A model generated the notes under the pieces. That model had not been told where the DNA came from, did not search any database, and saw only the letters and a program-made list of their open reading frames with translations. A program made the position numbers and the translations under genes. This document shows positions 9,310-61,132 of a stretch of DNA of 64,000 bases, one piece after another. Where the stretch lies: NCBI GenBank assembly GCA_015063245.1, contig SUSV01000006.1, positions 1 through 64,000 on the forward strand. Reading direction: 5' to 3'. The DNA is from Thermoplasmata archaeon. GTDB lineage: Archaea; Thermoplasmatota; Thermoplasmata; Methanomassiliicoccales; Methanomethylophilaceae. Position 1 is the stretch's first letter. Every line of letters begins with the position of its first letter.

Positions 9310-10686
9310 ATGGAGGAATATGGGGTCGGCGAAAGGAACTCTGCTCCAGACGATGCTCCGGATATCAATGTTATAGAAACCCATGATTCCGTTCAGGATG
9401 CCGGGCTGAATTTCGAGCCCTTCGAGCACATCCCCAACCCTGCGGCCGAGGAGATAATCGCGAAGATGCATATCCTGCTCCTCATTGCGGAGGACAACCG
9501 CAACGAAGGGGAGATTCTTCATATCGCGGATTCTATGCTCGACATCGATCCCTTCTGCAGCGACGCACTGTTCTGGAAGGGCGGTTCGCTGTTCGACTCA
9601 TCAGATCTCATCGGCGGCCTCGAATCATGGGACAGGGCGATCCCAGACATGAGCCTCAGATATGTCGAGGATTATGCGGACATCATGCTGGAGACCATAG
9701 CAGATTGCTGCTAGCACGCCATTGTCGAACTGCATGACATGAGAAGGATTCCGGAACTGGTCATGGGCATCTGCGGCAAGCTCAGGGCAAGGGGCTACAG
9801 CAATCCGGAGCTTATGATCTCCGCGCTCCGCATGCCGTTGTATCTCGCAGAGGATGAACGTGATGCCGATGGCATCATCCGTATCTCCGAGTTCATGACA
9901 TCCATCGATCCCGAGTGCCCCGATGCGCTGTTCTGGATCGGGGGCAAGAGATCGGATTCCGATTTCCAAGGAGCTCTCGAGTGCTGGTCCAAGGCCGTCG
10001 GAGGCATGGATGTCAGATATATCAGGGACTATGCGGATGTCATCGTCGAGACGTTGGCGGAGGGATGCTTCGCCGATACATCAGACTATCATGCTGACCG
10101 TCAGATTCCATTGAGGATAGCCGGCATCTGCGAATCCATCAGCAGGAGGGTCCGCAGCGAAGACCTTCATTCCAATCTCGATCCGATGGGGTACATCATC
10201 GGCTGCCTGTTCGACCGCATAAGGCAGTCGGAGGATGCGGATGTTGCATCGAAGGCTTCGACCAAGGCCGTCATGCTCGCACTGTGCGATGCTTCGATAT
10301 CCCCGTCACTGGAATATCAGGACGACCTCTTCAGCCGTTCGGCGACGAGATTCGCCGTGCTACACGCAAGGGCGATGTTCGACAGGTTCGACTCGCCCGG
10401 ATACTTCAGGCGCAGATCCTGCTACAGGATCATCAGGGCGAACAACGATTTCATGCAAGCTCTCTCCAATTACGTCCACAAGGCAGCGAACAGATACTAC
10501 AGAGGGATCTTCGTCAGGCTGGAGAATCATTGGAAGGGTAATGATATGAGTGCCTTCACCGGCAGCCTGTTCGAAGCGTACGATGCACAGAGGTCGGGGA
10601 GACCGCAGTCCTCCAGCATCCAGAATAAGCGCAACCTGTGCATCAAGAGATACCTTATGGGCTACTTCGAGCCTGTCCGCGAATGA
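9310..10686 (+). CDS. duplicated-domain helical repeat protein with in-frame TAG (probable Pyl135)
   Basis: A single 458-residue frame interrupted only by TAG at 9712-9714 (codon 135) and ending in TGA. Two copies of a roughly 110-residue module follow each other. The first contains IDPFCSDALFWKGG and YVEDYADIMLETIADCC, then TAG, then HAIVELHDMRRIPELVMGIC. The second contains IDPECPDALFWIGG and YIRDYADVIVETLAEGC, then F, then ADTSDYHADRQIPLRIAGIC. The copies align without a gap across the TAG, which falls opposite Phe, so the TAG is an internal sense position. Pyrrolysine is the expected insertion in this lineage. The module resembles TPR/Sel1-like repeats; the function is not recognised. The ATG at 9310 has an upstream GGAGGAAAAGG ribosome site. 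The 3' end abuts the convergent gene at a shared TGATCA. Confidence 0.85.
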
Positions 10687-11356: not shown

Positions 11357-11956
11357 TCACATTTCCTGTGTCCCGTAGTACTTGCCGACCCCGCCGTAGC
11401 CGCTTATTATCCTGCCTTTGCGGGTGGCGAAGACGAAGTTGTCCAGGCGCTTCCTGAACTCGTCGGGGCGGCCCCTCGCGGCATCGATGTACGCGACGCG
11501 TATCCTTTTGTAAGGTTCGGGGAACGACACGTAATTGGCCCATACATCAGGTTCCCTTCTCAGTCCATCGATGATGTCCTCGGGGAAGACATACGGGGCA
11601 CGGATGATGTCCTCGACCATCGGTCTGACGTCGGGATGTATCAGTCCACATCCGTCCATCTAGATCAGGCGCTCGATGTTAGGTCTCGAATAGGTGCTGC
11701 TCCTCCTCGGGGTGAACCTTCTGAGCTGATGGGTGTCGTCCAGCCTCTTGGCCATCCCGTCGATCCATCCGAAGCACAAGGCCTCCTCGACCGCATCGTT
11801 GTACAGGATGCCCTTCTCGCCAGAATCCTTAGTCGGGAAGACGAACCATATCTCATCCCTATCGCGGAAATTGGCACAGAGCCAGCCACGCCATTCCGAA
11901 CGATCGTCGGAGTAGAATGTCTCCATGGTCCTGCCGTTTATGTTTACCTTAGTCAT
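11357..11956 (-). CDS. YdeI/OmpD-associated family protein with in-frame TAG (probable Pyl99)
   Basis: One frame of 199 residues with TAG at 11660-11662 (minus strand, codon 99) and a TGA stop. The N-terminal half (EIWFVFPTKDSG, LCFGWIDGMAKRLDD, RRFTPRRSSTYSRPN) and the C-terminal half (FPEPYKRIRVAYIDAARGR, a typical end of the family) each match one half of a normal roughly 190-residue YdeI protein. The TAG follows IERLI, where homologues continue straight into the segment before the second half. Two separate genes would each be half a domain. YdeI-family proteins have been linked to stress and antimicrobial-peptide tolerance in bacteria; a role here is unknown. Read-through as pyrrolysine is inference. 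Confidence 0.85.
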
Positions 11957-18638: not shown

Positions 18639-19396
18639 TCTACAATCAGGAGGAATGCAAGATCGTTGCATCCGTGTTGCAGCGCAAGACGATTGAGCGT
18701 TCTATATACAATTCTATGGAATCATTGCCTCTGTCCTTTAGGCTCTCCATGGACTGCCAGCTCGAGCTCGATATCAAGAGATGCCAAGCAATCATGAGGA
18801 TCGCTCAGAATGATTTCTCCAATGTGATCGACGATGTGGAGATACTTTCGCCACATCGCCCGTAGCTCCCTATCGATCTCTATCAGCATTACATGTCCTC
18901 TCTGCTGGAGACTGATATGTACTCCGAATCGGCATTCTCATTCTTCGTCAGCCTCGGTCTCAATTTCTTCATCCACATGACCAATGCGAAGAAATATGCG
19001 GCTTTGATGCTCAACGAGGCTAACGTCATCCCATACTCAGATTTCGTCACATATCAGAAGGTCAGGGAACTGCTCCTGTCCTCCAAGGAACGCTATGAGC
19101 TGCTGAAGGATGAGACCGACCTCCCGTACGCGGATGCAGGCAGATACATCGACTGCATGCTCGAGGAATGCGGCATCATGATCAAGATCCATCTCAGCAA
19201 GACGATACCTCTTGAGGACCTCTGCCTGCATATCGACGAGAGGGAGAAGGTTGACAAGGATGTGTATAACAAATTGTTCCTTCCCGAGATCGCCCCGGAA
19301 GATCGCAAGACTCTCCTTGACTTCCAGGCCAAGAGTGACTCTAGATTGGATGTGATGTATGCTCAAATCTTGGTCATCAACAAGATGGGATTGTGA
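18635..19396 (+). CDS. orphan protein with in-frame TAG (probable Pyl77)
   Basis: A 253-residue frame with TAG at 18863-18865 (codon 77) and a TGA stop. Before the TAG the frame encodes a helical 76-residue segment ending DDVEILSPHRP. After it the same frame continues at once with LPIDLYQHYMSSLLETDMYS and a further roughly 170 helical residues (SKERYELLKDETDLPYADAG; DRKTLLDFQAKSDSRLDVM). No ribosome site or earlier start separates the halves; the first ATG after the TAG is 10 codons in. Read-through with pyrrolysine is the simplest reading, but without a recognised family it cannot be tested by homology here. Alternative: two genes or a decayed gene. Confidence 0.65.
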
Positions 19397-59683: not shown

Positions 59684-61132
59684 TCAGAAATCGAAAAGGC
59701 TAGCCTGATTCTTCTTTTTCTCCGGGGCGGGCTTCTTCACCGGCTCGGCAGGAACCTCCTCTGGAGGCTCCACTATCACAGCGGGCTGCTCCGCGGCGGC
59801 AGGCTTTGGCTTCTTGACTGCAGGCACGGAGGCCTCTTCCTCGATAATCTTGAAGACGGCTTTTACCTCCTTAGAATCGGGTTTCTTGTCGAGAAGGAAT
59901 CCGAGCTCCTCCGGTTCGAGTGCCAGCTACTTTGTCATGACAAGACGCATCTCCTCCTCGTTGGCGGCGAGCTGCTTGATATAAGGGAGTACATCGAGGT
60001 CTACGCGGCGGGTCGATGTATGGAGGTAGACGGCCAGCTTGAGGCAGACCGATTTCCTGAGAGTACGAGCGGTCTTGCTGCGGGACATCTTGGAAAGGTA
60101 TGAGGGGAAGTGAAGACGATCATGGGAATACCTGTTGGACATGCGGGCGGTGTTGACGCCTGCGGACATCATGTCTCCTGCATAGGACCAGAATCCGTAA
60201 TACTGGCGCCTCATGACGCGGCCTAGGTAGATGTCGGCGCGGGAGAGCTTCTCGTATCCGCGAACGAGATCGCCTCTGTCAAGGTACTCGTATGGGAGAT
60301 TCTCATCCACCCAGAGCTCCATCTCGCCAGGATCGGTATCGGTGTCGAGCATCACGCGCCTGGCCTTCATGGCATCGGGCGACCTGAAGATCGCCGACAT
60401 GAGCGCATACATATCGTTGCGCTTGTCGCGTGCGGATATACCCTCTGCCATCTCGGCCGTAACATGATCGTTGCCGAGGCAGAGGGCCTCCAGATTGCGG
60501 ACGGCTGCGCGCATATCGCCGTTTGCCTTCTCTGCGATGATGGCCATCGCTTCCGGATCCACGGTGACGCCCTCGTTAGCCGCTATCTTATTGAGTGCCT
60601 TGACAACTGAAGGCACCTTGGGCCTTTGGAATGTTATCTGAAGGGTGTTCGTCTTGGCTGCGCTGCATTTCCTGGACAGCTCGTAGTAATCGTTCACTAT
60701 GAGTATCACTGGCTGGAGGGTCTCCTTGATGAGCTTCGTTATGACAGGGATTGCCCCGCGGTCCACATTGCCGAAGAAATTGTCGGCCTCGTCCAGTACG
60801 ATGAGCTTCCTCTGGCCCTTGCCTGTGTCAAGGTAGGATCCGTCGTCCGAGAACGTGTTGAACTTGGACCCCCTTATGGCGATATCCTCGATGGCCTGTC
60901 CGGTACGCTGATCGGATGCGTTCATCTCGACGATGGACCAGCCCATGTCCCTCGCTAGGGCCTCCGCTGATGTAGTCTTCCCTATACCGGGCGTGCCTAT
61001 CAGCACGACGGCCCTCATCGCCGGGATACCGGAGTTCCATGACTCCGCCCACTGCCTTAGGGTGTTGACTGCCCCGGGATTGCCGATGACGTCGTCCAGG
61101 GTCTTCGGGCGGTATTTCTCTGTCCAGTCCAT
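59684..61132 (-). CDS. rfcL: replication factor C large subunit with in-frame TAG (probable Pyl402) and PIP box
   Basis: 482 residues. AAA+ clamp-loader motifs are MDWTEKYRPKTLDDVIGNPG, Walker A IGTPGIGKT (45-53), VLDEADNFFG, and the RfcL C-terminal helical domain. TAG at 59927-59929 (codon 402) lies inside this domain. The frame continues LALEPEELGFLLDKKPDS, then an Ala/Pro/Lys linker and the terminal PCNA-binding motif NQASLFDF before TGA. RfcL proteins normally end in such a PIP box. Termination at TAG would remove about 80 residues and leave a 240-base gap before taw1, in a cluster whose genes otherwise abut. Read-through as pyrrolysine is inferred. Loads the PCNA clamp with RfcS. Confidence 0.93.

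What the first reader, a model, noticed from the sequence alone, without database searches (positions are those of the whole stretch)
59684..60000. Amber codon splits RfcL from its PCNA-binding tail
The frame of the clamp-loader large subunit holds TAG at 59927-59929. The same frame then runs 80 codons through a linker to the terminal PIP motif NQASLFDF. A PIP box is what RfcL proteins end with, so this tail is functional sequence and not chance. If amber read-through is partial, the cell would make two forms of RfcL, with and without PCNA binding. That could tie replication to pyrrolysine supply, and hence to the methylamine metabolism that pyrrolysine serves. The regulatory idea is inference; the sequence arrangement is seen directly.
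Basis: partly seen in the sequence, partly recalled or inferred. Interest (0 to 1): 0.92.

Follow-up and report, generated by a model that had tools for sequence, protein, structure and literature searches.

The report
Pyrrolysine codon inside clamp-loader gene rfcL
In this methanogenic archaeon the gene for the large clamp-loader subunit carries one amber (TAG) codon that is almost certainly read as the amino acid pyrrolysine; it is one of about 17-29 such codons scattered through a genome that has nearly stopped using TAG as a stop, so it looks like a chance, tolerated mutation and not a replication switch.

Summary
Observation confirmed. The rfcL frame (61132-59684, minus) has one TAG at codon 402 (59927-59929), then 80 sense codons ending in NQASLFDF and TGA. 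The tail is real: most of 99 relatives encode it without interruption, usually ending QxSLFDF, with Glu (GAG/GAA) at the TAG site in five of six close relatives. The genome has tRNA-Pyl(CUA), pylS and pylB/C/D-like genes beside an mtmB with TAG. TAG ends only 22 of 1323 called genes, and 14 of 20 testable ones continue into coding sequence, against 106 of 1283 for TAA/TGA. In-frame TAGs also sit inside RNase HII, Trm5 and CobB/CbiA-like genes.

So TAG402 is most likely read as pyrrolysine. The two-form switch is not supported. The TAG is private to this genome, as are those of RNase HII and Trm5, whereas mtmB's is conserved. The lost part is not just a PIP tail: residues 403-435 hold the last two helices of the folded C-terminal domain. 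No downstream RNA structure was found. Best reading: a neutral Glu-to-Pyl change, the pattern published for Ca. Methanomethylophilus alvus (PMC4153887).

The parts
59684..61132 (-). rfcL, replication factor C large subunit, 482 residues read with TAG as pyrrolysine (TGA stop at 59684-59686)
   Evidence: translation; NCBIfam RfcL equivalog NF003229 above its cut-off (351.6 against 280 bits), other RfcL models below theirs; orthologs along the full length in relatives
59927..59929 (-). in-frame amber codon TAG, codon 402, read as pyrrolysine; GAG or GAA (Glu) in five of six close relatives
59828..59926 (-). residues 403-435, end of the folded C-terminal domain (predicted helices 407-414 and 421-435), lost together with the tail if translation stops at TAG
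   Evidence: AlphaFold model (pLDDT about 85-87 for residues 411-430); dN over 403-428 equal to that of the body
59711..59827 (-). residues 436-474, variable disordered Pro/Lys/Glu linker
   Evidence: pLDDT below 50 for most of it; high dN over 429-470; alignment
59687..59710 (-). residues 475-482 NQASLFDF, C-terminal PIP box
   Evidence: same or similar C-terminus in relatives; pattern QxxLxxFx

Best explanation
TAG402 is a pyrrolysine codon that most likely arose by one G-to-T change from a Glu codon (GAG) in a genome where TAG is almost wholly given over to pyrrolysine. Ribosomes carrying Pyl-tRNA(CUA) read through it and make full-length RfcL with pyrrolysine at the end of helix 393-402 and an intact C-terminal domain and PIP box. 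The change is most likely neutral or nearly so: tolerated because amber decoding is routine, not selected as a switch. A side effect is that replication, like several other core functions, needs the pyl genes. Shown: the sequence arrangement, the pyl genes, the genome-wide TAG pattern, the lack of conservation of the position. Inferred: efficient decoding in the cell, the ancestral GAG, and neutrality.
For: pylT(CUA)-pylS-pylB-pylC-pylD cluster next to a TAG-containing mtmB (pylBCD named from gene order and translation). TAG ends 22 of 1323 called genes, and 14 of 20 testable ones continue into coding sequence against 106 of 1283 for TAA/TGA. With TAG as sense, 17 of 29 in-frame TAGs have coding sequence on both sides, against 7/109 (TAA) and 82/1210 (TGA). 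TAGs lie in mid-domain of RNase HII, Trm5, a CobB/CbiA-like gene, MtmB and MttB. The rfcL TAG is not shared: the other relatives with a TAG in the rfcL frame (G030, G037, G048, G057) have it at other positions. RNase HII and Trm5 TAGs are private too, while mtmB's TAG is in every full-length match in relatives. Sequence after the TAG is still constrained. Same pattern published for Ca. M. alvus: 16 extra Pyl proteins, 1.6% TAG stops (PMC4153887).
Against: No proteomics or pylS-null data. aRF1 is single-copy with intact NIKS and YxCxxxF motifs, so some termination at TAG is expected. The nearest relative is at dS about 1.5, so the age of the TAG is unknown, and constraint on the tail after the TAG arose cannot be separated from constraint before it. 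The genome is a 12-contig assembly without read data, so a base error at this codon cannot be excluded.
Confidence: 0.85

Rival explanations
1. One reading: partial read-through gives two RfcL forms, with and without PCNA binding, tying replication to pyrrolysine and methylamine supply.
For: TAG lies upstream of the PIP box; a second, independent TAG lies upstream of the PIP box in G030 (codon 466); the release factor keeps its motifs, so some short product is possible.
Against: TAG position not conserved. The short form lacks two predicted helices as well as the PIP box. No downstream RNA structure (z 0.56). TAGs are scattered over unrelated genes, several in mid-domain. A published review states that products terminated early at Pyl codons are degraded (PMC9499178).
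Confidence: 0.05
2. TAG terminates here: RfcL is a 401-residue protein and the rest is a decaying tail.
For: Standard code; aRF1 intact.
Against: Full pyl set, coding continuation, conserved helices and PIP box after the TAG, and no second strong rfcL match in the genome.
Confidence: 0.03
3. Assembly or sequencing error: the true codon is GAG (Glu).
For: One base away from GAG of close relatives; metagenome-type assembly with no reads at hand.
Against: Many other in-frame TAGs in the same genome, but no such excess for TAA or TGA, which random base errors would not give; other genomes also have TAG in rfcL, G030 being a single-contig assembly.
Confidence: 0.05
4. Pyrrolysine at 402 has been selected for a chemical role in RfcL.
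For: Nothing direct; the residue lies in a folded helix.
Against: Position not conserved; relatives have Glu, Ala, Asp, Asn and other residues there.
Confidence: 0.02

Closest known systems
Extra Pyl-containing proteins of Candidatus Methanomethylophilus alvus (Borrel et al. 2014, PMC4153887)
   Same: Gut-lineage Methanomassiliicoccales; 16 predicted in-frame TAG genes besides the methyltransferases, TAG as stop in 1.6% of genes, core genes among them (MtxX, Cas1, a phospholipid-synthesis gene); the authors already suggest that such TAGs could make Pyl decoding essential for growth.
   Different: RfcL is not in their Table 7, and different genes carry the TAG here (for example RNase HII, Trm5, CobB/CbiA-like, UvrD-like).
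MtmB/MttB methylamine methyltransferases with in-frame TAG
   Same: TAG read as pyrrolysine by the same machinery, in the same genome.
   Different: There the TAG is conserved in all full-length mtmB matches of relatives; in RfcL it is private to one genome.
Pyl in tRNA-His guanylyltransferase of Methanosarcina by neutral evolution (Heinemann et al. 2009; title seen only in the reference list of PMC4153887; paper not held)
   Same: Pyrrolysine in a housekeeping protein without a role in methylamine use, explained by neutral evolution.
   Different: Different protein and lineage; details not checked here.
Archaeal RfcL (for example RFC-B of Haloferax volcanii, with a C-terminal PIP box, PMC7776575)
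   Same: Same architecture: AAA+ core, C-terminal domain, C-terminal PIP box.
   Different: No amber codon described there.

Membership tests
Archaeal replication factor C large subunit | Full-length RfcL homology with AAA+ and RFC-type lid | tested here: met
   NCBIfam NF003229 above cut-off, best scores all to RfcL models; AAA and RFC lid domains
Archaeal replication factor C large subunit | C-terminal PIP box | tested here: met
   NQASLFDF, same or similar in relatives; PCNA binding itself not tested
Pyrrolysine-containing protein | Complete Pyl synthesis and decoding set in the genome | tested here: met
   tRNA-Pyl (CTA anticodon), PylS C-terminal domain above cut-off, and pylB/C/D-like genes in order behind it
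Pyrrolysine-containing protein | Homologous coding sequence on both sides of the TAG in one frame | tested here: met
Pyrrolysine-containing protein | Pyrrolysine found at the position by mass spectrometry | not testable with these tools
   no proteomic data at hand
Regulated read-through switch | TAG position conserved among relatives | tested here: not met
   TAG at this site only in this genome
Regulated read-through switch | Downstream RNA element such as a PYLIS | tested here: not met
   109-nt stretch folds no better than shuffles, z 0.56; such an element is not required for Pyl insertion in general (PMC9499178)
Regulated read-through switch | Short form is a complete folded domain | tested here: not met
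   two predicted helices of the C-terminal domain lie after the TAG (predicted structure only)
Regulated read-through switch | Two protein lengths in the cell | not testable with these tools
   needs immunoblot or proteomics

The most novel reading that the evidence does not exclude
Termination competes with pyrrolysine insertion at codon 402 often enough that, when methylamines run out, full-length RfcL (together with RNase HII, Trm5 and others) falls, so that growth and replication are coupled to pyrrolysine supply as an unselected consequence of amber recoding.
Probability: 0.12. Interest if true: 0.65.

Novelty: new member of a known kind. Interest (0 to 1): 0.33.

Why it matters
It adds a core replication protein, and in the same genome RNase HII and Trm5, to the proteins that appear to need amber decoding in the gut lineage of Methanomassiliicoccales. 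This supports the view that in such genomes TAG has become an ordinary sense codon and the pyl genes have become needed for housekeeping, not only for methylamine use. It also warns that standard annotation will truncate these genes.

Tried and rejected
Search for the PylS N-terminal domain: absent, as expected for this order (PMC9499178, PMC3941956). PYLIS-like structure after the TAG: none. Altered release factor: aRF1 has NIKS and YxCxxxF, as do relatives without pylS, so no change there explains the recoding. Clustering of TAGs in rfcL across relatives: three internal TAGs in about 90 orthologs; against a rough, hand-made expectation of 1.0 the Poisson probability is 0.08, not significant. 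Pfam and NCBIfam on the 80-residue tail alone: nothing. Literature on a pyrrolysine RfcL: a search for both terms gave three papers, and none of their titles or abstracts reports it. From memory there is a recent report of an archaeal code with all TAG codons as pyrrolysine; it is not in the held library, so it is not used as evidence.

Full report
What is there. The minus-strand frame 61132-59684 encodes a 482-residue RfcL if TAG is read as an amino acid. The single TAG is codon 402 (59927-59929). Eighty codons follow, ending NQASLFDF and TGA.

The tail is real. In a search of 100 genomes (this one and 99 relatives) most rfcL orthologs run through without a stop. In the alignment of those read in detail, the site of TAG402 is GAG in G013 and G009 (84% and 79% identical) and GAA in G003, G019 and G030; G007 has GCC. 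So the TAG is one base away from the Glu codon of the closest relatives. Nei-Gojobori counts against the closest relative give dN 0.08 over residues 403-428 and 0.03 over 471-482, against 0.09 for residues 1-401; only the linker 429-470 is loose (dN 0.88). dS is about 1.5, so the TAG may be much younger than that split and this test cannot date it.

Structure. An AlphaFold model from 34 sequences (mean pLDDT 79, pTM 0.48) puts residue 402 at the end of helix 393-402, followed by helices 407-414 and 421-435 with local pLDDT about 85-87; after about 436 the chain is disordered. A product ended at TAG would therefore lose the last two helices of the C-terminal (collar) domain as well as the PIP box. 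That the collar is where RFC subunits assemble is general knowledge, not tested here.

The decoding machinery is present. ARAGORN finds tRNA-Pyl (CTA) at L056:10104-10174, followed in order by pylS and pylB-, pylC- and pylD-like genes, with an mtmB containing TAG just upstream. The PylS N-terminal domain is absent, as published for this order (PMC3941956, PMC9499178). The lineage is identified by relatives: the closest named matches are Thermoplasmata, Methanomassiliicoccaceae and Candidatus Methanomethylophilaceae assemblies, several from ruminants.

TAG is used as sense across the genome. A simple codon-usage gene caller on separate stretches gives 1323 genes: 1188 TGA, 113 TAA, 22 TAG. Of genes with a measurable continuation, 14 of 20 TAG-ended ones continue into coding-like sequence, against 106 of 1283 TAA/TGA-ended ones (Fisher p 4e-11). 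When each stop in turn is read as sense, 17 of 29 in-frame TAGs have coding sequence on both sides, against 7 of 109 TAA and 82 of 1210 TGA. The gene caller is home-made and the absolute counts are approximate; the contrast between codons is what counts. Pfam shows the TAG inside domains of RNase HII, Trm5, a CobB/CbiA-like enzyme, MtmB and MttB; UvrD-like, Mur-ligase-like and Na/Pi-cotransporter genes carry it too. For RNase HII and Trm5 a stop at TAG would cut the catalytic domain.

The rfcL TAG is not a conserved feature. mtmB shows what a functional Pyl codon looks like: every full-length match in relatives has one TAG. rfcL, RNase HII and Trm5 show the opposite: their TAGs are private to this genome among the relatives searched. 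rfcL has TAG elsewhere in a few relatives: G030 at codon 466 where the near-identical G019 has GAA; G057 at codon 201, inside the AAA+ part; and G037, G048 and G057 directly after the PIP box, where it looks like the natural stop. This is the pattern of scattered, independent gains.

Is there a switch? Nothing specific supports one. There is no unusual RNA structure after the TAG. The single aRF1 has intact NIKS and YxCxxxF motifs, also seen in relatives without pylS, so termination may compete with pyrrolysine insertion; a review describes that competition and says prematurely ended products are degraded (PMC9499178). I therefore do not exclude partial termination, but regard two functional RfcL forms as unlikely.

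Prior art. Borrel and co-workers (PMC4153887) reported 16 extra Pyl proteins and 1.6% TAG stops in Ca. M. alvus, and proposed that TAGs in genes of major function may have made Pyl decoding essential. RfcL is not in their table. The present finding is a new member of that set.

Method note. I took stretches covering nearly all of it and worked on each separately, without joining them.

Noticed in passing
window 9310-10686 (+): Second in-frame TAG gene in the window: TAG at codon 135 of a 458-residue frame, coding-like on both sides, no Pfam match.
   Followed up: partly
window 11357-11956 (-): Third in-frame TAG gene: TAG at codon 99 of a 199-residue protein with an OmdA/YdeI-type domain.
   Followed up: partly
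window 18749-19396 (+): In-frame TAG at codon 39 of a 215-residue frame; weak coding signal before the TAG, so the start may simply lie after it.
   Followed up: no
L102:4807-5451 (-): RNase HII with TAG at codon 72, inside the domain and private to this genome: another replication-related enzyme that would need amber decoding.
   Followed up: yes
L073:12596-13594 (+): Trm5-type tRNA methyltransferase with TAG at codon 289, inside the catalytic domain and private to this genome.
   Followed up: yes
L058 (G057:C124) and L060 (G048:C27), rfcL: In these relatives TAG follows the PIP box (SLFQF-TAG) and looks like the natural stop, with TGA or TAA 5-11 codons later; G057 also has an internal TAG at codon 201, so one gene may use TAG both ways. 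No pylS was found in G057, an 84% complete assembly.
   Followed up: partly
G003 (same genus): No PylS match in a 96% complete genome, although two mtmB genes with TAG are present: either an assembly gap or loss of pylS.
   Followed up: no
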